A stretch of 64,000 bases of DNA, taken from the NCBI RefSeq assembly GCF_030817535.1, contig NZ_JAUSZL010000002.1, positions 2,976,001 to 3,040,000 on the forward strand. Reading direction: 5' to 3'. A program made the position numbers and the translations under genes. Under the pieces are notes generated by a model. The model saw only the letters and a program-made list of their open reading frames with translations, was not told where the DNA came from and did not search any database. The stretch comes from Streptomyces sp. V3I8 (GTDB lineage: Bacteria > Actinomycetota > Actinomycetes > Streptomycetales > Streptomycetaceae). This document shows, one piece after another, positions 516 through 19,278 of the stretch (positions are counted from its first letter, which is position 1; each line of letters opens with the position of its first letter).

Positions 516-565
516 TTATTCCCGCTGTCCATCACCTTGTGAAGCGGAAGAGGGCGGTTGCCGCC

Positions 566-4513: not shown

Positions 4514-7500
4514 TCAGGTCGTCTGGGGCTCGAAGTTCCAATACAGGCGTGCCCGCTCTTCGGGGGTGGGCACGTCCTCGCCGCGCAGGGCGCGCAGGTC
4601 GGCGTCGAGGGCGCGGCGGGCGATCCGGGTCAGCGGGTGGTCCGGGCCCAGGATCCGGCCGGCCCGTTCCACCGTGTCCCGGCCCAGCTCGACGGCCGCT
4701 TCGACGCGGTCGGTGAGGTGCAGCGTCATCGCGGCGGTGATCGCACAGCCGAGGGCCCAGGGATGGTCGGACCCGACGGCGCTCGTCATGTCGGTCAGTG
4801 CCCGCTCGGCGAGACGGCGGGCCTGTGTCCGTTCGCCGACGGCGCGCAGGATGAGGGCCTGGTTGCTCCGGGCGCCCGCGACGAACAGGTGGTCCGGCCC
4901 GAGCAGCCGCTCGTACCGGTCGACCACGCGCTCGCCGAGCTCGCGTGCCCGGTCGATGTCACCGTGTTCGCGCATGAAACAGCTGTGGGCCGTCGCGAAG
5001 ACCAGGGTGACCGAGTGCCGCTTGCCGTGGACCCGTTCGCTCTTGACACGCGCGGCGGTGAAATGCTCTCCCGCCGCCTCCAGGTCGTCCGTGCGGTACA
5101 CGCACTGGGCCAGGTTGTAGACGGCCCACAGGGTCTGCGGATTGTCGTCACCCAGAACCTCCCGGTGCCGGGCCCTGTTCGCCCGCTGCATCTCCAGGGC
5201 CTCCTGATAGCGGCCCAGCAGGCGGAGGTCGATCGCGCACCAGGTTTCGCTGTTCAGAGTCAAAAAGTGGTGCGGGCCCAGCACCTCGCCGCGCAGACCC
5301 AGCACTCGTCGGTCGATCTCCAGGGCTTCCCCGAAGCGGCCGAGCAGCCGGAGCGAGACGGCCCGGTTGTTCTGGGCCCCGAGGGTGGCGGGGTGGTCCT
5401 CCCCGCGCAGTTCCGTGTACCCCTCGCAGACCTCCTCCGACAGGTGCAGCGACTCCTCGTAGCGGCCGAGCGCCCGCAGGTCGGCGGCGAGGCCGCCGAC
5501 CGCGCGCAGATACCGCCACTGCCGTACTCCGCCCGTCGCGCGGTGCTCCTCGACCGCCGCGCGGTTCACGATCTCGCTGTCCTCGTACGCGCCCATGGCC
5601 CGCAGCAGGTTGGCGTAGTGGTGGCCGAGGTCCCACAGCCGTTCGGAGTGCTCGTCCTGGTGCCCCTGCCAGGCTTCCAGCGCCTGTTCGGCGAACCGGA
5701 CGCCCGTGTCGTACTCGCCCGAGAGGTAGAGGTAGCGAAGGCAGCGGAGAACGAACTCCTGGACGTCCGGATCGGTGCGCGACAGCAGGTCCGCATGGTC
5801 CAGGTGCGGGACCAGTTCGGCGTACCGCCGCCACACACCGGTGTCGTCGGGGCTGCCCGGGTCCGATCCGACCAGCACGCGCCGGGCCACCTCGGCGCAG
5901 TCCCCGTACTCCTGCGGGGACATGTCGTGCCGGACGGTGCGGTGGACCATCCGGTGCACGGTGAGGAACTCGTTCGACGGGTCCTGCGGCGGGTGCTCCA
6001 CCCGGACCACCGAGTACTTCCGCAGCCGTTCGACGGCGGCGCCCCAGCAGACGTCGTCCGTCAGCAGCCTCGCCACGGCCGGCGGCAGTCCGTCGGCCGA
6101 CGTCCCGCGCAGCAGCCGCACGGGCACCGCGTCGGGGGTGAAGAACGTGCACAGCCGCAGCAGTTGCACGGCGTCCGGCGAGGTCTCGCGGAACTTGTCG
6201 AGCAGGAACGTCCAGGCGGACCGGAAGGTCATCGGGAAGTCGGCCGACACCTGGACCAGGGTGTCCCGGTCCGTGCCTCCCACCAGGAGTTGCTGGAGGT
6301 ACTCGGCGACCGGCATGCCGGACTCCTCCAGCCAGCCCGCGGTCTGGTCGAGGACCAGCGGCAGGTCCCCCAGCGCCTCGGCCAGCTGGTGGGAGTCCGG
6401 CTCCGTCAGGCGGGGCGCCCGCCGCCGGATGAACGCCACCGACTCGTCGCGGTCGTAGCCGGAGACCTCCACCATGGCGCCGGGCCGCGTGCCCCGGTCC
6501 GGGTTGCAGGAGGTGAGGAGCACATGCCCGGTGCCGGTCGGTACGAGGTCCCTGATGTCGTCCGGCTCGTCGGCGCCGTCCAGGATGAGCAGCCACCGCG
6601 GGTACGGGTCGCCGCGGCCCAGCGCGTCACGCACCGCGCGCAGCCGCTCGCCGTACTCGGTCCCGGTCGGCAGTCCCAGCTCGGGCGCCAGATCGGCCAG
6701 CCCCTGCCGGCACGCGGCCCGGTTGCCCGCGTGCACCCACCACACCACGTGGTAGCCGGAGGAGAAGCGGTAGGCGTACTCGGCGGCCAGCTGGGTCTTG
6801 CCCACACCCGACAGCCCGTGCAGGGTGACCCGGCTCTCGCGCTGGAGCGCCTCGTACACCGTGTTGAGCAGCGGCAGCCGGCCGGTGAAGCGGTCGTTGC
6901 GCTCGGGGACCCGGCCCCACACACGAAGGGTGTGCACGGGGAACGGCGGGCCGGAGCGCGTGTCCTCGGACGACTCGGGGGGCGGATCGGACGGCAGGTC
7001 GAGACGGTCCAGGAGGCGTCGTTCGGCCTCCTCGGCGCCCACGTCGTGGAGGGTGACCGCGTCGAGCACGGCCGCCCCGGCGGGCGGGGCCGAGGGGGCC
7101 ACGGTCACCGCCGCGATGCGCCGCGCGTTCGGTACGACGACCCCGCGCAGGGCCGCGTCCCACTCCTGGGCCGTGCGGGTGCCGAGCCTGAAGAACTGGT
7201 CGCTCAGGAGCAGCAGGACGGGTCCCGGCGCCAGCAGGAGGTCGCGCAGCGACTCCTCGACGGACACACCGGGCGGCGGGCCCCACCGCTGGTGCACGAC
7301 GCGGTGGCCGTGCCGTTCGAGGCGGTGCCCGATCCAGTCGGCCCAGCCGCGGTGGACGCCCGAGAAGCTGAGCGTGACGGTCTGCCGCCCGGTGCGCAGC
7401 CGTCGCGGCCCGCTCGGCGGCACCAGCTCCGGAAGGCTCTCCGGTGCGCTCCGCCGGCCGGTCGCACGGTGGTGGTCGGTCGCGCGGTGACGGCCGGCCG

Positions 7501-8029
7501 CGCGGTGGTCGCCGTCCCGGTCCGGGCCGTGACCGGTCCGGGAGAGGTCACCGGCCCGTTCCGGTGACCTGGGGGCGGGCAGGGGGCCGGCCGCGGACAT
7601 CCGTTCCCGGATGACCTCCGCCAGTCGGGCGGCGGGCGCGCTGCCGGGCACGCGCTCCCGGATCTCCGACAGCAGTTCGGCCTTGCGGACCGGTACGCCC
7701 CACTGGTTGTTGACCGTCAGCCACAGCGACGCGTGTCCGGTCGCGCGCCCGGTCGAGACCCGGAAGCGGACCGGTCCGTACGTACCGCCGAACCGGTGCA
7801 GGACGACGCTCGGCTCGTCGAGGGCGGTGCAGACGAAGTAGGGCGAGCCGTCCAGAGCGACGGTGAAGGTGAACTCCTCGTCGGGGTAGGGCCAGTGGCC
7901 GGCCGTGTCCCCGTCCTCGGTCAACGGGCCCCGCAGGTCGACGGTGACCAGGTACTCGCACTGCGTCTCGGCCTCCCGCGGCCAGGCCACGACGGGTTCG
8001 ATCAGGAGGGTGTGGTCGTCGAGGTTCAT
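4514..8029 (-). CDS. fxsT: TIR-NB-ARC-TPR protein of FxSxx-COOH system (FxsT-like, copy 1)
   Basis: This protein of about 1171 residues resembles the FxSxx-COOH system tetratricopeptide proteins. Residues 1-125 form a beta-rich domain of unknown type that copy 2 (12825-15857) lacks. After a low-complexity His/Arg linker, residues 216-350 look like a TIR fold (VTLSFSG at the first strand, LLLLSDQF, then AQEW with a Glu that may match the TIR catalytic Glu). An NB-ARC/STAND ATPase follows, with Walker A GLSGVGKT (about 406-413) and Walker B LLILDGADE (about 481-489). Residues from about 730 are TPR repeats of the kinesin light-chain type. ATG 8029 overlaps the CHAT stop by one base and has GGGGAGAGGG upstream; a GTG at 8032 is an alternative. 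This is probably an NTP-driven sensor or effector switch; its function is untested. Confidence 0.85.
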   Translation of the reverse strand: MNLDDHTLLIEPVVAWPREAETQCEYLVTVDLRGPLTEDGDTAGHWPYPDEEFTFTVALDGSPYFVCTALDEPSVVLHRFGGTYGPVRFRVSTGRATGHASLWLTVNNQWGVPVRKAELLSEIRERVPGSAPAARLAEVIRERMSAAGPLPAPRSPERAGDLSRTGHGPDRDGDHRAAGRHRATDHHRATGRRSAPESLPELVPPSGPRRLRTGRQTVTLSFSGVHRGWADWIGHRLERHGHRVVHQRWGPPPGVSVEESLRDLLLAPGPVLLLLSDQFFRLGTRTAQEWDAALRGVVVPNARRIAAVTVAPSAPPAGAAVLDAVTLHDVGAEEAERRLLDRLDLPSDPPPESSEDTRSGPPFPVHTLRVWGRVPERNDRFTGRLPLLNTVYEALQRESRVTLHGLSGVGKTQLAAEYAYRFSSGYHVVWWVHAGNRAACRQGLADLAPELGLPTGTEYGERLRAVRDALGRGDPYPRWLLILDGADEPDDIRDLVPTGTGHVLLTSCNPDRGTRPGAMVEVSGYDRDESVAFIRRRAPRLTEPDSHQLAEALGDLPLVLDQTAGWLEESGMPVAEYLQQLLVGGTDRDTLVQVSADFPMTFRSAWTFLLDKFRETSPDAVQLLRLCTFFTPDAVPVRLLRGTSADGLPPAVARLLTDDVCWGAAVERLRKYSVVRVEHPPQDPSNEFLTVHRMVHRTVRHDMSPQEYGDCAEVARRVLVGSDPGSPDDTGVWRRYAELVPHLDHADLLSRTDPDVQEFVLRCLRYLYLSGEYDTGVRFAEQALEAWQGHQDEHSERLWDLGHHYANLLRAMGAYEDSEIVNRAAVEEHRATGGVRQWRYLRAVGGLAADLRALGRYEESLHLSEEVCEGYTELRGEDHPATLGAQNNRAVSLRLLGRFGEALEIDRRVLGLRGEVLGPHHFLTLNSETWCAIDLRLLGRYQEALEMQRANRARHREVLGDDNPQTLWAVYNLAQCVYRTDDLEAAGEHFTAARVKSERVHGKRHSVTLVFATAHSCFMREHGDIDRARELGERVVDRYERLLGPDHLFVAGARSNQALILRAVGERTQARRLAERALTDMTSAVGSDHPWALGCAITAAMTLHLTDRVEAAVELGRDTVERAGRILGPDHPLTRIARRALDADLRALRGEDVPTPEERARLYWNFEPQTT

Positions 8030-9351
8030 CACGAACCCTCTCCCCAGGCGCTGTGCCCTTTCTCGGTGACGAGTCGCAGTGTGGTGAGCGGATGACCGTA
8101 GTACTGGAAGGTGAAGGCATACAGCAGCCGCATGACCCGCTTCTGGCCGACCGCGTCCACATGACCGTCATCGTTGCGCGTCGTCGGGATGGCCGCCAGG
8201 CTGCCGAAGTCCTCCAGGACCCCGGCTCTGAAGGCCCGTAAGCTCTCCGGGACCGGGAGGTCCGGCCGTCCGGCGACCTGGCGCATCAGCCGCTGGATCA
8301 GCACGCGTGCGTCCTGGTCCCCGACCTCCCCGGCGGTGACGATGCAGCCGCCCGCTCCCTTGCGCAGGAAGAGTTCGGCGAATCCGCGCAGCGCGTTCTC
8401 GCCCTGTCCGACGTTGTTGACGAAGCGTCCCGAGTGGCAGGCGTTCAGGCACACCAGGGAGCCGTCCCTGCCCAGTACCCGCATGTCCTCGCTGTTGTAC
8501 TCCGCCCAGGTGCGTTCCGCGAGCGTGAGGCTCATGACGGCGTCGCCGTAGGTGCCGTGGCAGCCCATGTAGACCAGGCCGGTGGGGTCCCCCTGGTCCG
8601 TGGCGTCGAGGGCCCGCAGGAAGGAGGTCATCCCGCGGTGCGTCCGGTGCAGGTACGGCGCGAAGACGTGGGAGTCGTCGGCCATGTCCCGGTGCAGGTA
8701 GGCCAGGACACCGCCGTGGCACTCGCCGGTGGGGTACGGCGGAAGATCCTGGCTGCCGTCGTGCACGGTGGTCCAGCGGGTCAGGACGAGCAGGGCGCCC
8801 AGCAGGCCGCCCGGCAGGCCGTGTTCCTGGTCCGGTGGCACCCGGAACGCCTCCCACGGCAGCTCGTAGCCGGTGTCGTCCCACACGATGAGGCGCAGCG
8901 CGTCGCCGTGCCTGGCGCGGGCTGCGTTGATCCAGGAGGCCAGTTCGCCCTGGTTGTCCGACCAGTGCCCTATCCCGCGCAGGATCTCGGACGGGTACAG
9001 GCCGTGCTGCGTCAGGTTGCCCAGGGCGACGGCCGGAGCGGTGAGCCGGGTCGGTCCGGGCGCGCAGGTGACCGTGAGGTCGCCGCACCAGCCGCGGAAC
9101 CGGTAGCCGTCCCGCCCGTCCGCACCCGCGGCACGCATGACGCGGAGCACCGCGTACCCGTCCTCCAGCCGCTCGTGGAGCCTGGCGTCGACACTGCCCA
9201 TGCCGACCGGAGCCTCCGGCGGGTGCAGCAGGTGGAGCAGCGACGGGAGTTCGCGGCGTACGGCGTCCATGGGGCGGGGCAGGGGCGCCCGGCGGATCGC
9301 GCTGCCCGCGCCCGTCAGCCAGCGGGGACCGCGCGGCGGCTCACCACTCAC
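8029..9351 (-). CDS. CHAT-domain caspase-like protease
   Basis: This is a 440-residue protein with a C-terminal CHAT peptidase fold. The segment LPWEAF (164-169) is typical of the domain. The catalytic dyad is visible as His265 in YMGCHGTYGD and Cys305 in CLNACHSG. The N-terminal 120 residues are not recognised. In other systems CHAT proteases are activated by a partner sensor and cleave a target or process a peptide. Here the gene sits between a vWA protein (overlap of 11 bases) and a TIR-NB-ARC-TPR protein (overlap of one base), so it is translationally coupled to both. GTG 9351 is chosen for the GGGGAGGGG run about seven bases upstream. The substrate is unknown. Confidence 0.85.
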   Translation of the reverse strand: MSGEPPRGPRWLTGAGSAIRRAPLPRPMDAVRRELPSLLHLLHPPEAPVGMGSVDARLHERLEDGYAVLRVMRAAGADGRDGYRFRGWCGDLTVTCAPGPTRLTAPAVALGNLTQHGLYPSEILRGIGHWSDNQGELASWINAARARHGDALRLIVWDDTGYELPWEAFRVPPDQEHGLPGGLLGALLVLTRWTTVHDGSQDLPPYPTGECHGGVLAYLHRDMADDSHVFAPYLHRTHRGMTSFLRALDATDQGDPTGLVYMGCHGTYGDAVMSLTLAERTWAEYNSEDMRVLGRDGSLVCLNACHSGRFVNNVGQGENALRGFAELFLRKGAGGCIVTAGEVGDQDARVLIQRLMRQVAGRPDLPVPESLRAFRAGVLEDFGSLAAIPTTRNDDGHVDAVGQKRVMRLLYAFTFQYYGHPLTTLRLVTEKGHSAWGEGS

Positions 9352-11335
9352 CGGCGTCCCCTCCCCGGCCGGTGTCCGGACCCCTGCCGCCGCCGCTGTC
9401 CCGCCCTCTGCCGCGTCCTTCGACCACGGTGGCGCCCAGCGTGTCCGCGAGGGCGGCCGGCAGGTTCCCGTACGGTTCGCGTCCCGCGTCGACCACGACC
9501 GTCTGCAAGCGGGTGCGGTCCATGCTCCTGACGTCCGCCGCGGCGTTCAACGCGTCCTCCACCCCTTCGGCGCCCACCGGGCCGCCCAGCCGTCCCGTGT
9601 GACTGGCCCGCAGCGGGACGTTGCCGCGCCCGTCCGTGACCACGACCAGCCAGGCCTCGGCGAGACCGCTGCCGTGCTGCCGGAAGGCACGGCGCAGGGC
9701 CAGCGCCGCCTGTTCGATGCCGTGGGCGAGCGGGCTCGCGCGGCCCGGCGGCCGGTAGAGGGCGGCGAGGAGCCGCGGGTCGAGCACGCTGCGCAGGGCG
9801 AAGGACTCCGCCTTCAGTTCGTCGGCCGCCCGCGCGCCGCCGATCTCCACGACGTGGACGGCGGCGCGCATGGTGTAGGCCCACTGGAGGTACGGGGTGA
9901 GGGTGTCCTGCCAGTCCCAGTCCCCGCGGCACGTGTGGTCCAGGACCAGGACGAGGAGGCGCTCCGGAGCGCCGGCCCGGACGTGGCTGTGCAGGTCGGC
10001 GGGGGAGACCGTGAAGCCCTCGGTGCGGCGGACGCGCTGGTGCACCGCGGCCTCGCGCACGGTGCGCACATAGGCGAGGTCGTTCAGGTCCCGGGCCCGC
10101 CGTGAGCCGATGACCACGCCGCGCTGGGGGTCGGTCCCCGGCGTCCGCTGCCATGGGCTGCGCAGCGGGGCGAAGTCGCGCAGTACGTCCGCGCGGTCCT
10201 CCGGGTAGGGCGTGGCGAAGACGGCCGGTGTGCCGCCCGGGGCGCTTCCGACGCCTTCGGCCGGCTCGGTCTCCAGCAGCGTCTGTCCGGCTTCGGCCCA
10301 GCGGCGCTCGGCCTGGTCGCCCTGTCCGCGTCGCACGGTGTCACCACGCGGCCGCGGCACCGGGCGGGTCGGAACCGGCGCGGCATGCGCCGGACCGGCC
10401 GCCGGTCCCGCGGGCTGGGGCGGCTCGGTGACGGCCAGGCCCATGAGCCGGGCCGCTTCGTCGCAGTGCGCGACACCGGTCGTGTGTTCCCCCTCCAGGG
10501 CGGCGAGCGCCCGGGCGAGCCGGGCGAGGGCGAGTTGTCTGCGCACGCCGGTGTCGGGGCCCAGGAGTCGTCCGACGCGGGTGACCGCCTCGTCGGTCAC
10601 GGTGACGGCGGGTGCGTCGTTCCCGCCGACGGCCCGGGCGGCGCGCTCGAGCCAGGCCGGTGGCAGGGAGCCGAGCAGCCGCTCGACGTCGGGGAGCCGC
10701 AGGTCGGCGGCGGGCAGCCGGATGGCGAACCGGTCGAGCAGATGGCTGCTGATCCGGCCCGCGTCGGCCGAGCCGCAGGCCGCCAGCCAGCGGGCCCGGG
10801 GCCGGGCGGTCTGGCTCAGTCCCGCGTGCTCGACCACCGCCACGTCGGCGCCCAGCAGCTGGACGGCGCCGCGCATGCCGGCGACGCTCAGGCGGCACAG
10901 GTCCGGCACGGCGACCACGGGCGGGAGCGTTTCGGGCCGGTCGTCCGCCTGGATGAGCGGGCCCGGTTCCAGATGGAACGCGATGCCGTCCGCCTCCTGG
11001 CGCAGTACGGCCCTGGTCCACAGGTCCTCGTCCCGGCTGGTGGCGCCCAGCATGACGGGCGGGGCCTCCGGCCGCCCCGCGCCGGCCAGGATCCGGCGGA
11101 AGAGGCGGGCCACCGGGTCCAGCAGCCGGGGTTCCAGGTCGAACAGCAGCACACTGCAGAGCGCGGGGTCGACCGCGGCGCAGACGAGGGCCCGGCACAG
11201 GCGCAGCGCGAGGTCGTCCGGCTGTTCGCCCCGCTCGTGCCGCGGTCCGCGCTCCGGTTCGGTGCCGGTGCCGGTGCCCGCGCCGGTGCCGGTGTCGGCG
11301 GGTGGATCGACGCCGCTCGGCGGCTCGGTGGACAT
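9341..11335 (-). CDS. ChlD-like/vWA-domain partner of a MoxR ATPase
   Basis: This 664-residue protein resembles the D subunit of magnesium chelatase-type complexes. The first 30 residues carry a simple GT/DT repeat. Residues of about 30-300 look like a degenerate AAA domain without a Walker A; a lid-like HLLDRFAIRLPA segment is visible. The middle is a Pro/Arg-rich linker. The C-terminal 240 residues look like a vWA fold (LVLVLDHTCRGDW at the first strand, SPLAHGIEQAALALRRA, AWLVVVTDGRGN). The MIDAS motif DxSxS is replaced by D-H-T-C-R, so metal binding may be altered. It starts eight bases after the MoxR stop and overlaps the CHAT start. It is probably the substrate-recruiting half of a MoxR-vWA chaperone-like pair. 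Confidence 0.75.
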   Translation of the reverse strand: MSTEPPSGVDPPADTGTGAGTGTGTEPERGPRHERGEQPDDLALRLCRALVCAAVDPALCSVLLFDLEPRLLDPVARLFRRILAGAGRPEAPPVMLGATSRDEDLWTRAVLRQEADGIAFHLEPGPLIQADDRPETLPPVVAVPDLCRLSVAGMRGAVQLLGADVAVVEHAGLSQTARPRARWLAACGSADAGRISSHLLDRFAIRLPAADLRLPDVERLLGSLPPAWLERAARAVGGNDAPAVTVTDEAVTRVGRLLGPDTGVRRQLALARLARALAALEGEHTTGVAHCDEAARLMGLAVTEPPQPAGPAAGPAHAAPVPTRPVPRPRGDTVRRGQGDQAERRWAEAGQTLLETEPAEGVGSAPGGTPAVFATPYPEDRADVLRDFAPLRSPWQRTPGTDPQRGVVIGSRRARDLNDLAYVRTVREAAVHQRVRRTEGFTVSPADLHSHVRAGAPERLLVLVLDHTCRGDWDWQDTLTPYLQWAYTMRAAVHVVEIGGARAADELKAESFALRSVLDPRLLAALYRPPGRASPLAHGIEQAALALRRAFRQHGSGLAEAWLVVVTDGRGNVPLRASHTGRLGGPVGAEGVEDALNAAADVRSMDRTRLQTVVVDAGREPYGNLPAALADTLGATVVEGRGRGRDSGGGRGPDTGRGGDAGEW

Positions 11336-11343
11336 CGTCTGTC

Positions 11344-12289: not shown

Positions 12290-12705
12290 GAGTCGGTTCC
12301 CCCTCCGCTGCCCGGTGACGCCTCGGTCCGGGCGGCGGTTCGCCACCGGAACGTGACCTGCAGCTGTGCTTCGGCCTTGCTGGTGACCAGCGCCGCCATT
12401 CCCGCGTCGACCTTGATGGACAACTGCATCTCGATCTCGTCCGGCCGCAGACCGTCGGCGATCTCACCGAACCGGCTGACGGCCTGCACCGCGCACCGCC
12501 GGGCCAGCTCCAGTCCGTCCGTGTAGGCGTCGTGGGCCACCTCCACGACGCGCTGGGCGGCCCGCCCTCTGACCTGCTCGTCCCCGTAGACGGCCGCGAG
12601 ACCGTCATCGGGACCGTTCTCGGCGCCCGGACCGGGGCTCACCTCGACCTGGACGGGGATGGGCCCGTCCGCGCCCGCCGGTACGGGGCCCACCAGAATC
12701 ACCAC
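12286..12705 (-). CDS. Trypco1-like (CU044_2847 family) small protein
   Basis: This protein of about 139 residues has an N-terminal strand pattern (VVILVGPV, PIPVQVEV) and a C-terminal region resembling the CU044_2847/Trypco1 family. The second half reads RPDEIEMQLSIKVDAG, then SKAEAQLQVTFRW, like the family pattern PDEVEVEFGVKL...AEAxFxVxLxW. Trypco1 domains are known from actinobacterial conflict loci containing MoxR, vWA and protease genes; their biochemical role is unproven. GTG 12705 or 12702 is favoured by a GGGGGGA ribosome site; the longer frame from ATG 12777 adds 24 unconserved residues. The stop overlaps the MoxR GTG start, so the two are probably co-translated. Confidence 0.65.
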   Translation of the reverse strand: MVILVGPVPAGADGPIPVQVEVSPGPGAENGPDDGLAAVYGDEQVRGRAAQRVVEVAHDAYTDGLELARRCAVQAVSRFGEIADGLRPDEIEMQLSIKVDAGMAALVTSKAEAQLQVTFRWRTAARTEASPGSGGGTDS

Positions 12706-12824
12706 ATGTCCCCCCGGTTCAACTCTCCGGTTTTCTACGGGTGCCGACTGTTGCCGTTGGACGGGAACTGGCTTCATTCCCCGGTGCGCGTGAAGGTATA
12801 CGTCGAGGCCTCACTTCCCCCGGC

Positions 12825-15800
12825 TCAGGTGGAATACGGTTCAAAGTCCCAGAAAGGTCGTCTGCGGGAGCGGGCGGACATCACCTGTGGATGTTGGGGC
12901 CCGAACGTGGCGGTCAGATCCGTCAGCGCTTCCTGCTCGATCTTGTCGGCCTGCCGGCTGCTCCTGAGCCCCCGCAGATCGTCCGCCAGAGCGACACGTG
13001 CGCAGAGCGTCAGCGGATGGGTGCGCCCCAGCGTCCCGGTCGCCCTGGCGACGGTGTCCCCGCTGAGTTCGGCGGCTCCGTCGAAGTTCCCCATGGTCTT
13101 GCGTACCGCGGCGGCGTTGACGGCGCAGCCCAGCGTCCAGGGGTGGTCCTTCCCCACGGCCGCCGTCAGGTCGGCCAATGCCTGCTCGACCAGTGCGTGG
13201 GCCTGGTCGCGCTCTCCCACGTCGTGGAGAACCAGTGAGTGGTTCGCCCGGGCTCCCGCGATGTAGGGGTGCTGTTCGAGCAGCATCACTTCGTAGCGGG
13301 CGAGCACGGACTCACTGGCGGCGCGCGCTTCGTCGATGTCGCCGTAGCGACGGGCGAAGCAGCTGTGGCTGGACGTGAAGATCAATGTGAACGGGTGCGT
13401 CTCACCCAGTACGCGCTCGCCGCGTTCCCGCAGGTCGGCAAGGAGCCTTCCGCCCTGCGAACGATCGTTGCCGTCGTACAGGCACCGCGCCAGGTTGTGC
13501 TCGGCCAGCAGGGAGTTGGCGTGGTCCGGCCCGATGGCTTTCTTCAGCTCACGCGCGTTCTCCCGCTGGATCGATCCAGCCATCTTGTACTGGCCCAGCA
13601 GGCGGAGGTCCATCGCGTAGTAGCTCTCGGACAGCAGCGTCTCCACGTGCCCCGCACCCAGAATCGTCCGCCGCTCCTCCAGCGTGCGCCGGTCCTGCTC
13701 CCGTGCCTGTTCGTACCGGCCGAGGAGCCGCAGCGCCACCGCCACGTTGTTCTCGGCACGCAAGGTCGTTGCGGAGTTCTCACTCAGCGAGCTGCGGCAC
13801 ATCGGGACGAGCCGCTCGCAGAGTTCCAGGGCTTCCTCGTACCGGGCGAGTCCCCGCAGATCCGCCGCCAGTCCGCCGACCATGCGCAGGTACGCCAGCG
13901 ACCCGGCTCCCTGCTCCTCCTTCAGGTGCTCCACGCCCGCACGCATGATGGCTTCGGAGCGCTGGTAGTCCCCCACCTCGCGCAGCAGGTTGGCGTAGTG
14001 GTGGGCCACTTCCCAGACCCTCGGATGATTCTCGCCGAGCAGCGCACGCCATGCCTCCATGGCCCGTTCACCGAGCTTGAGGCCGGTCGCGTACTCGCCC
14101 GAGCGGTACATGTAGCGCAAGCTGTTGAGGATGAGGCGCTGCGCCCCGCGGTCCTTGCTCCCCAGTACGTCCGCGTATTTGAGATGCGGCACGAGCTGCG
14201 CGTAGGCGTCCCATGATGCGCGGTTGTCAGGATTCTTCGGATCAGCCGTCACGAGCGCCCGCCGCACCGTGTCGATGAAGAGGTCGCGATCCTCGTCCGG
14301 CATGTTCTGGCGCACGATCTGGTGGACCATCCGGTGCAGATAGAAGGGTGCGTCCGAGGTGACGGCCTCATCGGCCTCGTCCGCCTCGTCCGCTCGGACT
14401 TCCTCGGGAATGACGGAGTAGCGTTGCAGCTGATCGACCGCTTTGAGCCACAGTTGCGGCTCGTCCAGCAAGCGGGCGACACGCTCGGGCAGGCGGTCGG
14501 TCGACACCTGCCGCAGCAGACCCACCGGAATGAGTCCTGGCGCGAAGAACGTGCACAACCGCAGCAGGTCGACCGATTCCGGAACGGCCTCGTACAGCTT
14601 GCCCAGGAGTATCGACCAGGCCCGCTGGAAGGGCATCGGGAAATCCGGGGACACCGTCACCACGTCCGGATTGATGCTCTCCTCCAGCAGGTCGATGTAC
14701 CGCGCCACCGACATGTCGGAGTCCTTGAGCCAGCCGGCCGTCTGGTCCAGCACGAGCGGCAGGTCCTCCAGCGCTTCCGCGAGCTGGCTCGCCTCGACCC
14801 TGGTCAGCCGCGGGGCACGGCGGCTGATGAAGGCCACCGACTCCGCGCGGTCGTACACCGGCACCTCCAGCAGCCGGCTGTTGTGTTCCCGCCACTGCAG
14901 GTTGCGCGAGGTGATCAGGACGTGGCCGGTGCCCGTCGGCACGAGACCCGAGATCTGCTCCGGTTCGTCGGCACCGTCCAGCACCAGCAGCCATTTCGCG
15001 TAAGGGGTGCCCCGGCGCAGCGAGTCACGCACCGCCCGCAGCCTCTCGCCGTAGTCGGCGCCGGTGGACAGTCCGAGCCTCGGCGCGAGTTCCGCCAGGG
15101 TCCGCCGGTAGACGGCCCGTTTGTCGGCACCCACCCACCAGACCACGTCGTACTCCAGGCAGAACCGGTACACGAACTCCGCGGCCAGCTGGGTCTTGCC
15201 CACCCCGGGCATGCCGTGGAAGGTCACGACACCCGCACCCGGCTCGGCGTTCTGCAGCAGCTGGTACGCGTTGTTCAGCAGCTCCTCCCGCCCGGTGAAG
15301 CGGATGTTCCGGCGCGGTACGGTCGGCCCCCAGATATCGGGAGAGGCGGTCGGGAAGCGCGGCGCCCGCTGTGTGCCGGCCGGGGCCTCCGCCAAGGGCT
15401 GACGGAGCAGGTCGAGCCGGTCGAGCCGGTCGAAAACCCGGCGCTCGGCCTCCTCCGACCCCATGACGGTGAGGTCCGTCGCGGCGAGTACGGCAGTCGC
15501 CGTCGGTACCGGCTCCGCGGTGACCAGAACCGCGGCGAACCGTTCCGGGTCGGGCGCCACCACCTCACGGAGCGCGGCGTTCCACTCCTCGTGAGTCCTC
15601 GGCCCGAGCTGGAAGTACCACTTGCTGAGGACGATGAGGATGCGTCCCGGGGCGAGCTTCAGGTCCCGCAGGTGGTCGGCCAGCACGATCTCCGGAGACC
15701 CCGCCCAGCGTTGGTACACGACACGGAGTCCGCGGCGCTCAAGCACGTGGCCGATCCAGGCCGCCCAGGCCCGGTCGTAACCGGCGAAGCTGATCGTGAC

Positions 15801-15857
15801 GGAGTCTTCGCGGGCATGCCTGTCCGCCCGTCCGGCCGGCACGCGGCTTTCAGACAT
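12825..15857 (-). CDS. fxsT: TIR-NB-ARC-TPR protein of FxSxx-COOH system (FxsT-like, copy 2)
   Basis: This is a 1010-residue paralogue of the 4514-8029 protein. The TIR-like domain spans residues 18-150 (VTISFAGYDRAWAAWIG, RILIVLSKWYF, HEEW). The NB-ARC ATPase follows with Walker A GMPGVGKT (215-222) and Walker B LLVLDGADE (290-298). From about residue 560 there are kinesin light-chain-like TPR repeats up to the C-terminus FWDFEPYST, similar to YWNFEPQTT in copy 1. Copy 1 has an extra N-terminal beta domain that this one lacks. ATG 15857 has GGGGGAGG eight bases upstream. A perfect palindrome lies just beyond, so this gene probably has its own promoter, separate from fxsAB. TIR-STAND-TPR proteins commonly act as nucleotide-gated switches; NADase activity is inferred only. 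Confidence 0.85.
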   Translation of the reverse strand: MSESRVPAGRADRHAREDSVTISFAGYDRAWAAWIGHVLERRGLRVVYQRWAGSPEIVLADHLRDLKLAPGRILIVLSKWYFQLGPRTHEEWNAALREVVAPDPERFAAVLVTAEPVPTATAVLAATDLTVMGSEEAERRVFDRLDRLDLLRQPLAEAPAGTQRAPRFPTASPDIWGPTVPRRNIRFTGREELLNNAYQLLQNAEPGAGVVTFHGMPGVGKTQLAAEFVYRFCLEYDVVWWVGADKRAVYRRTLAELAPRLGLSTGADYGERLRAVRDSLRRGTPYAKWLLVLDGADEPEQISGLVPTGTGHVLITSRNLQWREHNSRLLEVPVYDRAESVAFISRRAPRLTRVEASQLAEALEDLPLVLDQTAGWLKDSDMSVARYIDLLEESINPDVVTVSPDFPMPFQRAWSILLGKLYEAVPESVDLLRLCTFFAPGLIPVGLLRQVSTDRLPERVARLLDEPQLWLKAVDQLQRYSVIPEEVRADEADEADEAVTSDAPFYLHRMVHQIVRQNMPDEDRDLFIDTVRRALVTADPKNPDNRASWDAYAQLVPHLKYADVLGSKDRGAQRLILNSLRYMYRSGEYATGLKLGERAMEAWRALLGENHPRVWEVAHHYANLLREVGDYQRSEAIMRAGVEHLKEEQGAGSLAYLRMVGGLAADLRGLARYEEALELCERLVPMCRSSLSENSATTLRAENNVAVALRLLGRYEQAREQDRRTLEERRTILGAGHVETLLSESYYAMDLRLLGQYKMAGSIQRENARELKKAIGPDHANSLLAEHNLARCLYDGNDRSQGGRLLADLRERGERVLGETHPFTLIFTSSHSCFARRYGDIDEARAASESVLARYEVMLLEQHPYIAGARANHSLVLHDVGERDQAHALVEQALADLTAAVGKDHPWTLGCAVNAAAVRKTMGNFDGAAELSGDTVARATGTLGRTHPLTLCARVALADDLRGLRSSRQADKIEQEALTDLTATFGPQHPQVMSARSRRRPFWDFEPYST

Positions 15858-15871
15858 GCAGCGGCCTCCCC

Positions 15872-16070: not shown

Positions 16071-17558
16071 TCATTCGGAGGGCGCACGGGAGCGAAGCCA
16101 GAGCGCGCGAGCGGTATTGACCGCTGCCTCGGCCCGGATCCGGGCGCCGCGGGGAGGAGGGTTCTCACCCATCCGCTCGCACTCGCCGGCCAGCTGGTCG
16201 ACCAGCCGGCGCCCCGACGACGTGAGGGAGTCCGCCCCCGCGATCACCGGCAGCGTCACTCGCACCTGCTCCCGGTAGCGGGCGTGCTCCCGCCAGGCCG
16301 CTTCCCGCTGTCCGGGACGGGAGGCAACGGTCAGCGCGCACCGCTGATAGAAGTCCGCGAGCGCCACGTGACTGTAGACCCCCTGCAACAGCCCGTCGTA
16401 CGGTCTTGGATCCGGCCGCCACGGCGCGAAGTACCGTTCCTGCGGACCTTCTCGGTGCAGCACCACCATGTCGCTGAGGGCCGCGAGCTTGGCATGCTGG
16501 ACCTCGTGGACAAGGGTTGCCGCGAAGGTGGCGGGTGTCGGCGGCATGCTGCTGAGCACAGCGCCGAAGGCTTCTCGCCGGGTCCCGCTGCAGCTTCCCG
16601 CCCGGCTGTGCTCCCCCGGGCCGGCCGGTACGGCCAACGGCACCAGACAGCGCAGGAGCGCGGCGACCTCCGCAACCCGGTGCTCACCGCCCAGTCGGAG
16701 CAACGGAAGCACTCCCGACCAGGAACGGAGCCATTGCTCACGTCCCGCTCCGTCAAGAGTCGCCGGCCCGCTCAGCCCTTGATGGTGCTGGCCGGAGGGG
16801 ACCGAACGGTAGGGATCGAGATCGTCGAGGGGAACGGAGGCGGAGCCGGGCAGCAGGCCCGGCAGGCTGTACGCCGGGACCCAGGAGTCGGCCCCGGAGT
16901 GCGTGGCGGCACTGACGCCGGGAACCACACAGGTTCCGGCTTCCTCGTACACCACGACATCGGCACAGCCGTGCCGACTCAGGACGGTACGACCGTCGCG
17001 GTGGACGACGTCCACAGCCCTTCCCCCCGGCTCAGCCATACGCAACGCCCCCAGTGACGGCAGGTGCAGCGCGCCTTCGGTCGCGGTCAGCCGTACGGAG
17101 AAGGGCACCCCGGCCCGTACCGCAGCTGCGGCGGCGAGCGCGCTGAAGTGGGCGAGACCGCGACGCACGGTGTCGGCCTGCTGTCGACGCGCCGCACGGG
17201 AGCCCGGTACCGAGCCAAGTGCGCGCAGGCAGGTCCGGCCCCACGGGCCGACGAGCGGGTAGAGGAGCCGGGTATGGGCGGAAGACCGGCGGACGATGGC
17301 CCTCTCATCGTGCGTCGGGCCTTCCGCCCCGACCTCGCCGTCCGCCTCCTCCAGCAACGCCCAGTCCTCCCTCAGCCGGTCGCGCAGCGGTCTGGGGCAC
17401 ACCTGCGGGTCGGCCGCGTCGACGGCGTCCAGGACCGCCCGGAGCAGGAGCAGGCGCCGTAGGTACTGGTCTCTCTGCAGAAGGGCGAGCGTGTCGGGCC
17501 CGCCTGCCGTGCGGCCCAGTTCGCTCAAGGCCCGCTCGGTCAGCACCGACGGGATCAA
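16071..17558 (-). CDS. HEXXH-motif putative peptide modification protein
   Basis: This 495-residue protein carries one HEXXH motif, HEVQH at 351-355 in LVHEVQHAKLAAL, typical of a zinc metallohydrolase site. The rest is alpha-rich and resembles the HEXXH-motif domain proteins that accompany FxsB-type radical SAM enzymes. Known families of this kind are predicted to act on the modified peptide, for example by proteolysis or further tailoring; no reaction is established. Its ATG overlaps the fxsB stop as ATGA, so the two are translated together. A downstream gap of 213 bases separates it from the TIR-NB-ARC-TPR gene, marking the end of the fxsAB transcript or an internal promoter. Confidence 0.8.
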   Translation of the reverse strand: MIPSVLTERALSELGRTAGGPDTLALLQRDQYLRRLLLLRAVLDAVDAADPQVCPRPLRDRLREDWALLEEADGEVGAEGPTHDERAIVRRSSAHTRLLYPLVGPWGRTCLRALGSVPGSRAARRQQADTVRRGLAHFSALAAAAAVRAGVPFSVRLTATEGALHLPSLGALRMAEPGGRAVDVVHRDGRTVLSRHGCADVVVYEEAGTCVVPGVSAATHSGADSWVPAYSLPGLLPGSASVPLDDLDPYRSVPSGQHHQGLSGPATLDGAGREQWLRSWSGVLPLLRLGGEHRVAEVAALLRCLVPLAVPAGPGEHSRAGSCSGTRREAFGAVLSSMPPTPATFAATLVHEVQHAKLAALSDMVVLHREGPQERYFAPWRPDPRPYDGLLQGVYSHVALADFYQRCALTVASRPGQREAAWREHARYREQVRVTLPVIAGADSLTSSGRRLVDQLAGECERMGENPPPRGARIRAEAAVNTARALWLRSRAPSE

Positions 17559-18820
17559 GGCGTGTCTCCTCCGTGAACGTCCGGTCCGGCCGGGCTGCGA
17601 TCCGATGCCGACGCCGCCGCGGTTCTCGTTGCCGCCGTTGCCGTCGCCGCCGCGAGCCGCCGGGCCACGTGCCGGATGAAGCGTTGCAAATCAAGGCAGT
17701 AGACAGAAGGGTTGGCGAAGCCCTCTCCGGCACGGTAGCGATGGGCGTAGTGGCCGCCGCCGCACACCGCGAGCAGGGGGCAGGCCCGGCAGCGGGCTCC
17801 CAGGGCCGCGACACCCGCCTGCCGGGCCGCGACGCCGGGGTGGCGCAGCGCCTCGTCGAAGCCATGCCGGAAGACGTCGAGACCCGTCCGGGAGGCGCCG
17901 TCGTAGGCGGACTTGAGCGAGTCGACCTGCTCGATGCTCCCGTCGGTTTCGACGACCACGGCGTCGAACGGGGCGAGGCCCAGCGACTCGGTGGCCGCGG
18001 GCAGCCCCGCGAGCAGGGCGATGCACTCCTCGAAAAGACGTACCCGGGTCTCCTTCCGCCGCCCGAGCCACCACCGGTCGAAGACGGCGCACAACCAGTC
18101 GCCGTACGGCGTCCGTACCGGCCGGGGGCCGTCCTTCCCCTCCGTCTCGGGCTCGATGTGGGGCGGCGGAGCCGACCAGTTCCCGTGCGGCAGCAACAGG
18201 TCGAGGGCCGGCGGGCGCAGGGCGAGCAGGGATTCGTAGACGACCACGGGATCCGTGACCGGATCGACCACCGTCAGCACTCCGGCGTACGCGTCCGGAT
18301 GGTGATCGGCGAGCAGGCGCGCACCGCGCACCGCGGCCGGCCAGGACGGGCGGCCGGAGTGGTCGACGCGTCGGGCGTTGTGCGCGGGCAGGCCCCCGTC
18401 GAGGCTGATGCCGACGCTTATGCCGTGGCGGGCCAGCACACCGACGCGGCGCGCGGTCAGGAGGGTGGCGTTGGTCTGGACGGTGGCGTGCACCGTGCAG
18501 GTCCGGGGGACGCTCCGACGGACGCGCGTGGTGAAACGGGCGAGCGTGTCCACCCCGGCGAGAAGGGGTTCACCGCCGTGCAGGACCAGGGAGACGGCGG
18601 TCAGTCCGTGTGCCGCCGCGTGTTCGCCGATGCGGTACGCGGCCCGCTCCAGCACGTCGGGCGGCGTGGCGGCCGGCCGGTCCCGGTAGGTGCGGTCGGG
18701 ACCCTCGTAGAGGTAGCAGTAGCGGCAGGCGAGATTACACCTTCCATGGACTTTTACGATGAATTGCCGGAATGGAGCGACCGAGACACATACCGGTGCG
18801 GACACCCCCTGGCTGTCCAC
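17555..18820 (-). CDS. fxsB: FxsB-family radical SAM/SPASM cyclophane-forming peptide maturase
   Basis: This 421-residue enzyme has the radical SAM cluster motif Cx3Cx2C (C28, C32, C35 in GRCNLACRYCYLYEG). It also has a C-terminal SPASM cysteine set (CRACPLLAVCGGGHY, then a later Cys in SVYCLDL) for auxiliary Fe-S clusters. FxsB-family enzymes crosslink an aromatic side chain to the beta carbon of a residue two positions later in a short peptide, forming a three-residue cyclophane. The substrate is almost certainly the 58-aa peptide encoded just upstream. The open frame extends to 19312, but the extra 164 residues are Arg/Gly-rich and unlike the family; GTG 18820 after GGGGGTGG is chosen. It overlaps the HEXXH gene by four bases. 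Confidence 0.88.
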   Translation of the reverse strand: MDSQGVSAPVCVSVAPFRQFIVKVHGRCNLACRYCYLYEGPDRTYRDRPAATPPDVLERAAYRIGEHAAAHGLTAVSLVLHGGEPLLAGVDTLARFTTRVRRSVPRTCTVHATVQTNATLLTARRVGVLARHGISVGISLDGGLPAHNARRVDHSGRPSWPAAVRGARLLADHHPDAYAGVLTVVDPVTDPVVVYESLLALRPPALDLLLPHGNWSAPPPHIEPETEGKDGPRPVRTPYGDWLCAVFDRWWLGRRKETRVRLFEECIALLAGLPAATESLGLAPFDAVVVETDGSIEQVDSLKSAYDGASRTGLDVFRHGFDEALRHPGVAARQAGVAALGARCRACPLLAVCGGGHYAHRYRAGEGFANPSVYCLDLQRFIRHVARRLAAATATAATRTAAASASDRSPAGPDVHGGDTP

Positions 18821-18945: not shown

Positions 18946-19101
18946 CCGCTCCTCGCGAGTGACCTCGGCAGCGCCATTCCCGCTGCCTTTGCCATGACAA
19001 ACGCAACCCGGTCGAACCTGTCCGGTTCGGCCGGTGGATCGACCGGAACCGGCAGGTGCGGCCGGGACCTGCGCGGCTCGGACGGTGTTTCGGACGGCGG
19101 T

Positions 19102-19278
19102 TCAGAAGGCGTTGTTGAACCCCCACAGCATCTCGCTCGGCTGCTCCGCCCGCTCCCGGAGTTCCGCCAGCACCTCGGCGAGCACAGGATGGTCGATCGC
19201 CCTCAGTTCCGCGAGCCCCATCGCGAGAAGATCCGGCAGCGGCTCCTCGGCCCCCTGTGCGTCGTCCTGTTCGCCCAT
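19102..19278 (-). CDS. fxsA: FxsA-like RiPP precursor peptide, variant C-terminus FNNAF
   Basis: This is a short leftward gene of 58 residues with an excellent ribosome site (AAGGAGGG) before ATG 19278. The leader contains LPDLLAMGLAELRAIDHPVL, an amphipathic helical stretch resembling FxSxx-COOH precursors. The C-terminus reads MLWGFNNAF. The family is named for a C-terminal F-x-S-x-x; here it is F54-N-N56-A-F58, with Asn in place of Ser. Three-residue cyclophane maturases can use several residues at that position, so an F54-N56 or W52-F54 crosslink is plausible. It precedes fxsB by 281 bases with a hairpin between. It is too short for default gene length cut-offs. Confidence 0.8.
   Translation of the reverse strand: MGEQDDAQGAEEPLPDLLAMGLAELRAIDHPVLAEVLAELRERAEQPSEMLWGFNNAF

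What the first reader, a model, noticed from the sequence alone, without database searches (positions are those of the whole stretch)
4514..19278. Single-strand block joining an FxsA/FxsB RiPP system to MoxR-vWA, CHAT and two TIR-NB-ARC-TPR proteins
Nine leftward genes with overlapping or near-touching ends combine a radical-SAM peptide system with a full set of parts typical of predicted NTPase-driven conflict systems. These are two TIR-STAND-TPR proteins, a CHAT protease, a MoxR/ChlD-vWA pair and a Trypco1-like protein. I know published predictions of MoxR-vWA-Trypco1 and of FxsA/B/T sets, but not a characterised locus with all parts together. One hypothesis is that the modified peptide is a signal or guard and the TIR/CHAT proteins are effectors. 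The operon may be two transcripts, split at 15858-16070.
Basis: partly seen in the sequence, partly recalled or inferred. Interest (0 to 1): 0.88.

Follow-up and report, generated by a model that had tools for sequence, protein, structure and literature searches.

The report
Peptide-linked TIR/CHAT immunity-like gene cassette
A conserved nine-gene Streptomyces cassette joins a peptide-modifying system to a chaperone-protease system that elsewhere stands alone and carries changing effectors; it looks like a bacterial immunity or cell-suicide switch, but its function has not been tested.

Summary
The nine leftward genes are real: FxsA, FxsB, aKG-HExxH protein, TIR-NB-ARC-TPR (T1), Trypco1, chelatase-type AAA+ (ChlI), ChlD/vWA, CHAT and a second TIR-NB-ARC-TPR (T2). 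ChlI is frame-broken in this strain, intact in 11 of 11 fetched relatives. The survey favours one unit: 14 of 199 Streptomyces genomes have the CHAT gene; in 12 of the 13 that can be judged FxsB starts 9-10 kb away on the same strand, and 11 of those keep all nine genes in order beside kgd. It is two joined modules. Module A (FxsA-FxsB-HExxH-T1) occurs alone at the same site. Module B (Trypco1-ChlI-ChlD-CHAT-T2) occurs without a detected FxsB in an Anaerolineae-containing phylum, Nonomuraea and a Streptomyces giant plasmid. There T2's Ig-like N-terminal domain (T2N) bears other effectors; in Streptomycetaceae loci compared it bears a paralogue of T1. Kaur et al. 2020 predicted FxSxx peptide-TIR-STAND coupling to VMAP/MoxR/vWA systems; the chelatase-CHAT-T2N class is not in the parts I read. 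Best reading: a peptide-gated, CHAT-controlled TIR-STAND conflict system. Unity is well supported; mechanism is inferred.

The parts
19102..19278 (-). FxsA, 58-aa precursor peptide ending EMLWGFNNAF (FxNxx core)
   Evidence: ORF; TIGR04268 40.8 bits, cut-off 28; identical protein in L013, 6 of 6 nt differences synonymous; core MLWGF[NDT]N[AS]F in the 10 other complete kgd loci
17555..18805 (-). FxsB radical SAM/SPASM cyclophane maturase (CNLACRYC motif); start placed by orthologues
   Evidence: TIGR04269 419.6 bits, cut-off 370; start
16071..17558 (-). aKG-HExxH peptide hydroxylase-like protein, HEVQH intact; overlaps fxsB by 4 nt
   Evidence: TIGR04267 169.8 bits, cut-off 40; sequence; PDB matches 22nu E 1.2e-20 and ChlH 8s5f E 8.3e-6
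12825..15857 (-). T1: TIR-NB-ARC-TPR (FxsT family), 1010 aa
   Evidence: NF040586 781 bits; TIR_2 60.7, NB-ARC 33.1; TIR Glu kept
12286..12777 (-). Trypco1 protein, 163 aa
   Evidence: PF19493 50.1 bits, cut-off 24.6
11344..12346 (-). ChlI: chelatase-type AAA+ (P-loop GARGTAKST); reading frame broken in this strain near 11977-11990
   Evidence: Three-frame reading; intact 312-334 aa frame in 11 of 11 relatives; 1-nt length difference in 5 of 5 alignments
9341..11335 (-). ChlD-like protein with C-terminal vWA region; DHTC[RH] at the place of a MIDAS motif (consensus recalled)
   Evidence: TIGR02442 and BchD-ChlD matches in the fused ORF; alignment A2
8029..9351 (-). CHAT (caspase-like) protease, His265 and Cys305 kept
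   Evidence: PF12770 29.8 bits, cut-off 24; H265, N303, A304, C305, S307 invariant in 17 of 17 rows
4514..8032 (-). T2: T2N domain + TIR-NB-ARC-TPR (FxsT family), 1172 aa; overlaps CHAT by 4 nt
   Evidence: NF040586 787.8 bits; TIR_2 at 219-340
7649..8032 (-). T2N: Ig-like beta-sandwich domain (residues ~1-128 of T2), constant part of the effector protein
   Evidence: AlphaFold2 mean pLDDT 85.9 over 151 aa, ten-residue block means 86-97 over 11-130; D32, W47, E52, E53, R80-F81-G82-G83, Y85, G112 invariant in 20 of 20 rows
7382..7654 (-). 91-aa low-complexity linker between T2N and TIR, candidate CHAT cleavage region (inference)
   Evidence: 46 of 91 residues are P/G/A/S/T, 11 hydrophobic
539..4414 (+). 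flank: kgd/sucA-type 2-oxoglutarate dehydrogenase, convergent
   Evidence: Pfam E1_dh, 2-oxoacid_dh, OxoGdeHyase_C
19476..19664 (+). flank: conserved 62-aa gene (label DUF6104 recalled), divergent from fxsA
   Evidence: ORF; lies next to kgd in the three genomes whose site is empty

Best explanation
The block is a fusion of two conflict modules at the kgd locus of Streptomycetaceae. Module A makes a modified C-terminal peptide: FxsB probably cross-links the F-x-N motif and the HExxH enzyme probably hydroxylates it. Module A also carries T1, a TIR-STAND-TPR protein that reads the peptide or its processing. Module B is a chelatase-type AAA+/vWA machine (ChlI, ChlD, with Trypco1) plus a CHAT protease that docks on the T2N domain. 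In other bacteria T2N carries unrelated effectors; here it carries a paralogue of T1, so that T1 and T2 can share one NTPase platform. On an invasion or stress signal, ChlI/ChlD remodel the CHAT-T2N complex, CHAT cuts the linker after T2N or T2N releases CHAT, and the TIR domains act on NAD+ to stop growth or kill the cell. Shown: gene content, order, conservation, catalytic residues, modularity, paralogy, gene conversion. Inferred: peptide chemistry, ligand, CHAT substrate, TIR activity, defence role.
For: One unit: 12 of 13 judgeable CHAT-bearing Streptomyces genomes have FxsB 9-10 kb away on the same strand; of 36 CHAT-centred loci 22 have the complete order, 3 all but a scored FxsA, 7 are cut by contig ends, 2 are two-FxsB variants, 2 have no Fxs match (overlaps the first set). 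Purifying selection: dN/dS below 1 for 8 of 8 genes tested against L013, FxsA 0 nonsynonymous to 6 synonymous (ChlI not tested). Module B alone: T2N in 6 of 350 genomes of the phylum of the Anaerolineae MAG, each time directly after a CHAT-family gene and without an FxsB match in the stretch read; also L115, L124, L125. Variable effectors on T2N. Coupling: T2 is an FxsT paralogue of T1 in the 16 loci compared, with recent gene conversion of the NB-ARC region in L076 and L019 (four-fold sites 93-96% alike within the locus against 62-72% between T1 orthologues); in L130 a caspase-NTPase-TPR protein and a T2N-NTPase-TPR protein, 68% identical over 779 aa, flank Trypco1-ChlI-ChlD-CHAT. TIR Glu in 31 of 32; CHAT His and Cys in 17 of 17.
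Against: No experiment; none of 7 proteins matches a PADLOC model except FxsB, weakly, to a viperin model. Stable inheritance at one core locus is less typical of defence islands. Module A exists without B in 18 of 40 sampled FxsB loci, all 18 beside kgd, so B is dispensable for A. Tandem TIR-FxsT genes also occur without module B (L053, L065, and L044/L045 away from kgd), so a second FxsT is not proof of coupling to B. One CHAT-family protein has lost both catalytic residues (L128) and one T2 TIR lacks the Glu (L019). ChlI is broken in this strain; unless that is a sequencing error, module B may be inactive here. No cleavage site was shown and the linker varies. In the window lineage T1 and T2 show no recent conversion (62-65% aa and 40-60% at four-fold sites over residues 191-390).
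Confidence: 0.55

Rival explanations
1. Two independent systems sit side by side at a permissive kgd site, with no functional link between peptide and CHAT machine.
For: Each module occurs alone. The kgd site can be empty (3 of 8 genomes read), hold other FxsT/HExxH genes (5 of 8), or the full cassette. The FxsB tree needs 6 changes of module B presence, at least 5 forced by starred branches. Tandem FxsT genes occur without module B (L053, L065).
Against: Order and orientation do not vary in the complete kgd loci read; in none of them does module B sit at kgd without A unless the contig ends first; TIR-FxsT after T2N was seen only where FxsB is near, with gene conversion from T1 in some loci; two-FxsB variants away from kgd keep the same combination (L024, L105).
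Confidence: 0.2
2. A developmental or metabolic regulator rather than defence: the 2-oxoglutarate-dependent HExxH enzyme beside kgd reports 2-oxoglutarate state through the peptide, and TIR/CHAT control differentiation or hyphal death.
For: HExxH family enzymes use 2-oxoglutarate (passages of PMC12636437); the cassette stays beside kgd in Streptomyces and Actinacidiphila; FxsA is unchanged between the window and L013 while its partners diverge.
Against: Seven of 18 kgd-linked A-only loci lack a detected HExxH gene (L041, L047, L054-L056, L062, L065); kgd is convergent, not co-directed; 185 of 199 Streptomyces genomes lack the CHAT homologue, so it is not a core regulator.
Confidence: 0.2
3. 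A RiPP natural-product cluster: FxsA yields a secreted cyclophane peptide and the other genes give maturation, proteolysis or self-protection.
For: FxsA/FxsB/HExxH families make cyclophane and hydroxylated peptides (NCBIfam names; PMC12636437 passages).
Against: No gene within 4514-19278 was assigned as an exporter; the core peptide is nearly constant among the A+B loci, although A-only loci vary more; two TIR-STAND proteins and a chelatase-CHAT machine are not typical RiPP parts (established knowledge).
Confidence: 0.05

Closest known systems
FxSxx-COOH peptide-processing systems, alone or coupled to VMAP-MoxR-vWA ternary systems (Kaur et al. 2020, PMC7159879; sections 8, 9 part 1, 20, 22, 24 and passages read)
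   Same: Small FxSxx-type precursor, radical SAM/SPASM enzyme, HExxH protein, separate TIR-AP-ATPase-TPR protein, AAA+-vWA chaperone pair, Trypco1, caspase-superfamily peptidases, role predicted in conflict; standalone peptide + AP-ATPase sets (my module A) are described there too
   Different: No VMAP; AAA+ and vWA are chelatase-type; CHAT is a separate gene 3' of vWA; the vWA protein bears no C-terminal effector; the effector hangs on T2N; core is FxNxx; the HExxH family is now described as 2-oxoglutarate oxygenases (PMC12636437 passages) rather than plain peptidases
TERNS3 and iSTAND2 MoxR-vWA systems (Kaur et al. 2021, PMC8195603; section 6 and passages read)
   Same: A separate gene next to vWA carries a constant domain fused to variable effectors
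   Different: There the constant domain is the alpha-helical vWA-L; T2N is predicted all-beta. The 5' gene here is Trypco1
Magnesium/cobalt chelatase I and D subunits (BchI/ChlI, BchD/ChlD)
   Same: AAA+ sequence relationship and the I-D/vWA arrangement
   Different: Far below the chelatase cut-offs (268.5 of 779 and 219.8 of 467 bits for the L022 ChlI); no H subunit recognised in the block; partners are Trypco1 and CHAT
aKG-HExxH RiPP hydroxylases (ChlH/ChlBH type)
   Same: TIGR04267 match, intact HExxH, sequence match to solved ChlH (8s5f)
   Different: Here a separate protein next to FxsB rather than fused to it; product unknown

Membership tests
FxSxx-COOH RiPP system (TIGR04268/TIGR04269/NF040586) | FxsA, FxsB and FxsT models above curated cut-offs | tested here: met
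   40.8/28; 419.6/370; 787.8 and 781/300
FxSxx-COOH RiPP system (TIGR04268/TIGR04269/NF040586) | C-terminal F-x-S-x-x | tested here: not met
   Window ends F-N-N-A-F; F-x-N at that place in the 10 other complete kgd loci. The protein still passes the family model
FxSxx-COOH RiPP system (TIGR04268/TIGR04269/NF040586) | Cyclophane installed by FxsB | not testable with these tools
   Needs mass spectrometry and NMR
VMAP-MoxR-vWA ternary system | VMAP gene 5' of MoxR, then vWA | tested here: not met
   5' gene is Trypco1; the CHAT protein matches only CHAT at E<=10
VMAP-MoxR-vWA ternary system | Variable effector domains C-terminal to vWA | tested here: not met
   The chelatase profile match ends at 975 of 1001 residues of the fused ORF, 638 of 641 profile positions; no long C-terminal extension in 6 aligned orthologues
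VMAP-MoxR-vWA ternary system | Aromatic-rich N-terminal extension of MoxR (WxhapG, PsWRxa) | tested here: not met
   Window ChlI has no Trp before the P-loop
beta-propeller or FtsH ternary systems | vWA with C-terminal beta-propeller, or an FtsH partner | tested here: not met
   No such Pfam match in the proteins of the block that were scanned
beta-propeller or FtsH ternary systems | MoxR of the bpMoxR family with GXXXTAKS P-loop | tested here: inconclusive
   P-loop GARGTAKS fits; PF20030 40.0 bits in L022 (cut-off 27) but 24.3, 25.1 and 24.6 in L014, L114, L115
TERNS3 / iSTAND2 systems | TERNS3 or iSTAND2 third component | not testable with these tools
   No model named so was met in the scans; the 5' gene is Trypco1
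TERNS3 / iSTAND2 systems | alpha-helical vWA-L domain carrying effectors | tested here: not met
   T2N is predicted all-beta
Magnesium/cobalt chelatase | Curated NCBIfam cut-offs of I and D subunits | tested here: not met
   L022 orthologues 268.5/779, 219.8/467, 163.9/500
aKG-HExxH peptide hydroxylase | TIGR04267 with intact HExxH | tested here: met
   169.8/40; HEVQH
TIR NADase | TIR domain with conserved Glu | tested here: met
   TIR_2 above cut-off; Glu in T1 16/16 and T2 15/16; that this Glu is catalytic is recalled; activity not tested
CHAT protease | CHAT domain with His/Cys dyad | tested here: met
   29.8/24; H265 and C305 in 17 of 17; the L128 homologue, outside that alignment, has lost both
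Known anti-phage systems in PADLOC-DB 2.0.0 | Match to a component model | tested here: not met
   6 of 7 proteins without a match; FxsB matches pVip at 33.4 bits (FxsA not scanned)

The most novel reading that the evidence does not exclude
Module B (Trypco1, chelatase-type ChlI and ChlD/vWA, CHAT, and an Ig-like T2N domain fused to interchangeable effectors) is an undescribed class of AAA+/vWA-centred conflict system found in at least two phyla. In Streptomycetaceae a modified-peptide system has been wired into it by placing a copy of the peptide system's own TIR-STAND receptor in the T2N effector slot, giving a peptide-gated complex with two STAND partners and a protease-controlled effector.
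Probability: 0.55. Interest if true: 0.85.

Novelty: new variant of a known kind. Interest (0 to 1): 0.72.

Why it matters
It gives the FxSxx peptide systems, whose role is only predicted in the papers I saw, a concrete set of conserved partners. It also adds a class to the AAA+/vWA conflict systems in which the effector is carried by a swappable docking protein next to a CHAT protease. That makes two questions directly testable: does CHAT cut or hold T2N, and does the modified peptide set the threshold for the TIR-STAND pair?

Tried and rejected
Programmed frameshift in ChlI: rejected, since 11 of 11 fetched relatives have one open frame there; in the CHAT-centred set 29 of 30 loci with a ChlI match show it in one open frame, the exception being L110, whose genes are in pieces throughout.

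Loss of module B by recombination between T1 and T2: rejected for the six A-type loci compared (L046, L048, L052, L053, L058, L063; nine comparisons). Their T1 resembles T1 of the A+B locus more than T2 in all but one 100-column block, with no switch to T2.

A motif scan for FxsA-like peptides in 22 non-kgd standalone and 10 fused FxsBH loci found almost none, so a contrast of FxN with FxS between locus types was not established. The promoter and terminator scan was uninformative. In one search one ChlI piece was translated in the wrong frame; its hits are ghost matches and are not used. In one search the corrected query for that piece came out as a single letter, so ChlI intactness rests on the length of the open frame after the N-terminal match. 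The script picked a wrong ORF; one search is the corrected one. One search was an empty script.

Full report
WHAT IS THERE. The block 4514-19278 holds nine genes on the minus strand. In transcription order they are fxsA (19102-19278), fxsB (17555-18805), an aKG-HExxH gene (16071-17558), T1 = TIR-NB-ARC-TPR (12825-15857), Trypco1 (12286-12777), ChlI (11344-12346), ChlD/vWA (9341-11335), CHAT (8029-9351) and T2 = TIR-NB-ARC-TPR (4514-8032). kgd, a 2-oxoglutarate dehydrogenase, converges on T2 from the left (539-4414); a small conserved gene and a DUF4097-like gene (labels recalled) lie on the right. No tRNA was found in the window. Both TIR proteins pass the NCBIfam cut-off for 'FxSxx-COOH system tetratricopeptide repeat protein' (787.8 and 781 bits, cut-off 300), so they belong to the FxsT family.

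ChlI is not intact in the window: its frame is lost near 11977-11990. All 11 relatives whose ChlI was fetched in the first set have a single open frame of 312-334 aa, and the window has one nucleotide more at this point against each of five relatives aligned. This may be a sequencing error or a recent loss; I cannot tell. The AAA+ is nearest to the magnesium-chelatase I subunit (BchI 1g8p, E 1.9e-56 for the L014 orthologue) but far below chelatase cut-offs. Intergenic gaps are 296 bp (fxsA-fxsB), 213 bp (HExxH-T1), 47 bp (T1-Trypco1) and 8 bp (ChlI-ChlD); the other four junctions overlap.

NEIGHBOURHOOD SURVEY. The CHAT protein has a homologue (E<=1e-10) in 14 of 199 Streptomyces genomes; FxsB (E<=1e-60) is in 127 of the 199. 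Twelve of the 14 CHAT genomes, the window's included, have an FxsB gene that starts 9-10 kb upstream on the same strand. One, G028, is on a 9.5-kb contig that ends inside ChlD (L018). One, G049, has a 34%-identical CHAT at both chromosome ends with no FxsB in the 13 kb read (L025). Eleven of the 12 have the nine genes in the same order next to kgd; L024 (G068) has two FxsB genes, no HExxH match, and no kgd in the stretch. In the family-level sample 5 of 150 genomes had CHAT; the four besides the window (L076-L079, three of them from another genus) have all nine genes and kgd. A CHAT-profile scan of named genomes gave 35 loci; with L115, 36 were read. Of these, 22 have the complete order, 3 lack only a scored FxsA near the edge of the stretch (one of them, L098, with ChlD matched in two frames), 7 are cut by contig ends, 2 (L105, L110) are two-FxsB variants without a kgd match, and 2 (L114, L115) have no Fxs match. 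Named carriers include S. dioscori, S. lincolnensis, S. bluensis, S. bungoensis, S. ardesiacus, S. fumanus, S. albiflavescens, S. poriferorum, Actinacidiphila epipremni and A. yanglinensis.

MODULE A ALONE. I fetched 40 other standalone FxsB loci, picked by hand from the rows that were listed (more matches were not listed) and were not CHAT loci, and 10 fused FxsBH loci. None of these 50 has a ChlI, ChlD or CHAT match; L046 and L050 have a Trypco1-like match. Eighteen of the 40 lie next to kgd with FxsB and T1 and, in 11 of the 18, a detected HExxH gene; the other 22 have no kgd in the stretch. Two of the 18 (L053, L065) have two TIR-FxsT genes in tandem, as have L044 and L045 away from kgd, so a second FxsT gene is not unique to module B. 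In an FxsB tree of 36 rows the presence of module B needs 6 changes, at least 5 forced by well-supported branches, so B has been gained or lost repeatedly. In 8 genomes without module B, 3 have an empty site (kgd followed directly by the small gene), 4 have divergent TIR-FxsT genes (about 41% identity) within the 7 kb read, three of them with an HExxH gene, and 1 has an HExxH gene alone; FxsB was not matched in these 7-kb stretches.

MODULE B ALONE. L114, from an Anaerolineae MAG, has Trypco1-ChlI-ChlD-CHAT followed by a protein whose N-terminus matches that of T2 (T2N) but continues into a PQQ propeller, LRR and Roc-COR domains, then a caspase gene; no Fxs gene was matched in the 12.4-kb contig. 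A T2N profile hit 6 of 350 genomes of that MAG's phylum (the tool names no genome; Anaerolineae belong to Chloroflexota by established taxonomy). In each, T2N follows a CHAT-family gene: L114, L127, L129 and L130 have ChlI-ChlD-CHAT-T2N (Trypco1 matched in all but L127), L126 is a 5-kb contig with CHAT-T2N, and L128 has ChlI-ChlD, a CHAT-like protein without the catalytic residues, and T2N at the contig end. L124 (Nonomuraea gerenzanensis, a chromosome-sized record filed as a plasmid) and L125 (1.56-Mb linear plasmid of Streptomyces sp. NBC_01483) have Trypco1-ChlI-ChlD-CHAT-T2N without an FxsB match in the 18.8 kb read; L115 (another actinomycete family) has ChlI-ChlD-CHAT-T2N. Module B is rare: CHAT in 2 of 296 and ChlD in 2 of 246 class-level genomes, the window being one of the two in each.

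T2N CARRIES SWAPPABLE EFFECTORS. Pfam finds after T2N: TIR-NB-ARC-TPR (window, L022), trypsin+EAD2 (L025, L125), CBM48+alpha-amylase (L124), ResIII+HsdM_N+N6-methyltransferase (L126, L127), CHAT+TPR with an NTPase region that matches NACHT/AAA models just at or below cut-off (L129), TPR with an AAA_16 match below cut-off (L130), PQQ+LRR+Roc-COR (L114); nothing in L115. A search of the large protein set with residues 1-150 of the L114 protein gave 10 proteins, one of them the query itself; the other nine carry Pfam accessions that I recall as NACHT, FGS/FGE-sulfatase, SMODS, trypsin, caspase, TPR, CHAT and NPHP3_N, without genomic context. T2N is predicted with confidence as a beta-sandwich. 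This constant-plus-variable pattern is the one Kaur et al. 2020 describe for the C-terminus of vWA proteins; here it sits on T2N.

HOW THE MODULES ARE COUPLED. In the 16 loci compared the T2 effector is a paralogue of T1. In L076 the four-fold degenerate sites of T1 and T2 are 93-95% alike over residues 141-390, and in L019 96% over 291-390, against 62-68% (L076 with L019) and 72% (L019 with L022, 291-390) between T1 orthologues; TPR regions of the same two pairs are 35-64% alike in protein. High within-locus values are also seen in L077-L079. This is recent gene conversion of the NTPase region in some loci; the window itself shows none. In L130 the upstream caspase-NTPase-TPR protein and the T2N-NTPase-TPR protein are 68% identical over 779 aa, an arrangement parallel to T1/T2 without an FxsB match. 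I infer that T1 and T2 share an NTPase platform; it is not shown, and the tandem FxsT genes without module B named above weaken it.

THE PEPTIDE. FxsA matches TIGR04268 (40.8 bits, cut-off 28) but ends F-N-N-A-F. The core is MLWGF[NDT]N[AS]F in the 10 other complete kgd loci, with WGFDNAM, WGFDNDTP, WGFNNSL, WGFNNAL and WGFNNAM in further A+B loci; A-only loci vary more, for example WAFNSAC, NAFDSGVA and WGGFNQFSQFSSSSLPS endings. Between the window and L013 FxsA differs by six synonymous and no nonsynonymous changes; dN/dS of the seven other genes tested is 0.16-0.59 (ChlI not tested because of its broken frame). The HExxH protein keeps HEVQH and matches solved ChlH and 22nu. PMC12636437 (passages seen) reports that a radical-SAM-fused HExxH protein once annotated as a metallopeptidase is a 2-oxoglutarate-dependent hydroxylase, citing work I have not seen, and that its own two enzymes hydroxylate and also cleave the backbone oxidatively. 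This changes the role that Kaur et al. gave this gene, though cleavage is not excluded.

MECHANISM. Shown: order, conservation, selection, catalytic residues (CHAT H265/C305 in 17 of 17; TIR Glu in 31 of 32), a 34-91-aa low-complexity linker between T2N and TIR in 15 of 16 loci (one not parsed), modularity and paralogy. Inferred: FxsB/HExxH modify the FxN core; T1 senses the product; ChlI/ChlD/Trypco1 gate CHAT on T2N; CHAT cuts the linker or frees T2; TIR domains consume NAD+. The least certain steps are the trigger and the CHAT substrate.

WHAT IS KNOWN. Kaur et al. 2020 (sections 8, 9 part 1, 20, 22, 24 and passages read) predict FxSxx peptide, radical SAM, HExxH protein and separate TIR-AP-ATPase-TPR coupled to VMAP-MoxR-vWA systems, mention standalone peptide sets with a similar AP-ATPase, and list four MoxR-vWA classes. 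Kaur et al. 2021 (section 6 and passages) add iSTAND2 and TERNS3. PMC10907252 and PMC10910872 (passages only) discuss the VMAP class. None of the parts read describes a chelatase-type pair with a separate CHAT gene and a T2N-like effector carrier. The word CHAT does not occur in the 2020 main text, but 'caspase' occurs 28 times and could cover CHAT proteins, and the source data of those papers were not available. My literature searches cover open-licence PMC papers only, so the claim that module B is undescribed is provisional.

VERDICT. The idea of one system is supported for Streptomycetaceae. The locus is a new variant of a known kind: AAA+/vWA conflict systems joined to an FxSxx-type peptide system.

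Noticed in passing
window ~11977-11990: Frame break in ChlI, present only in this strain among the relatives compared; sequencing error or recent loss.
   Followed up: partly
L076, L019, L077-L079 (T1 and T2 NB-ARC regions): Gene conversion between the two TIR-STAND genes of one locus, strongest in the NTPase region.
   Followed up: yes
L131, L133, L134, L137, L138 (downstream of kgd): The kgd site can hold divergent TIR-FxsT and/or HExxH genes without an FxsB match in the 7 kb read, or an HExxH gene alone (L138).
   Followed up: partly
L025 395-2952 and L125 9797-12570: Closely similar T2N-trypsin-EAD2 proteins at a Streptomyces chromosome end (with CHAT but no ChlI/ChlD match) and on a giant linear plasmid (with full module B).
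   Followed up: partly
L024, L105, L110: Variant cassette with two FxsB genes, no HExxH match and no kgd in the stretch; the L024 FxsA candidate has a different C-terminus.
   Followed up: no
L128 816-2549: CHAT-family protein in the CHAT position that has lost both catalytic residues.
   Followed up: yes
L110: Streptomyces sp. P3 record in which most cassette genes are split over several frames, as expected of indel-rich sequence.
   Followed up: no
L053, L065, L044, L045: Tandem TIR-FxsT genes in FxsB loci without module B.
   Followed up: no
window 41208-42638: Type 2A encapsulin shell protein (SrpI-like) with a cyclic-nucleotide-binding domain.
   Followed up: no
G000:C4:15216-17432 (L003): Another contig of the same genome carries a further FxsT-like protein at 264.6 bits, below the 300-bit cut-off.
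   Followed up: no
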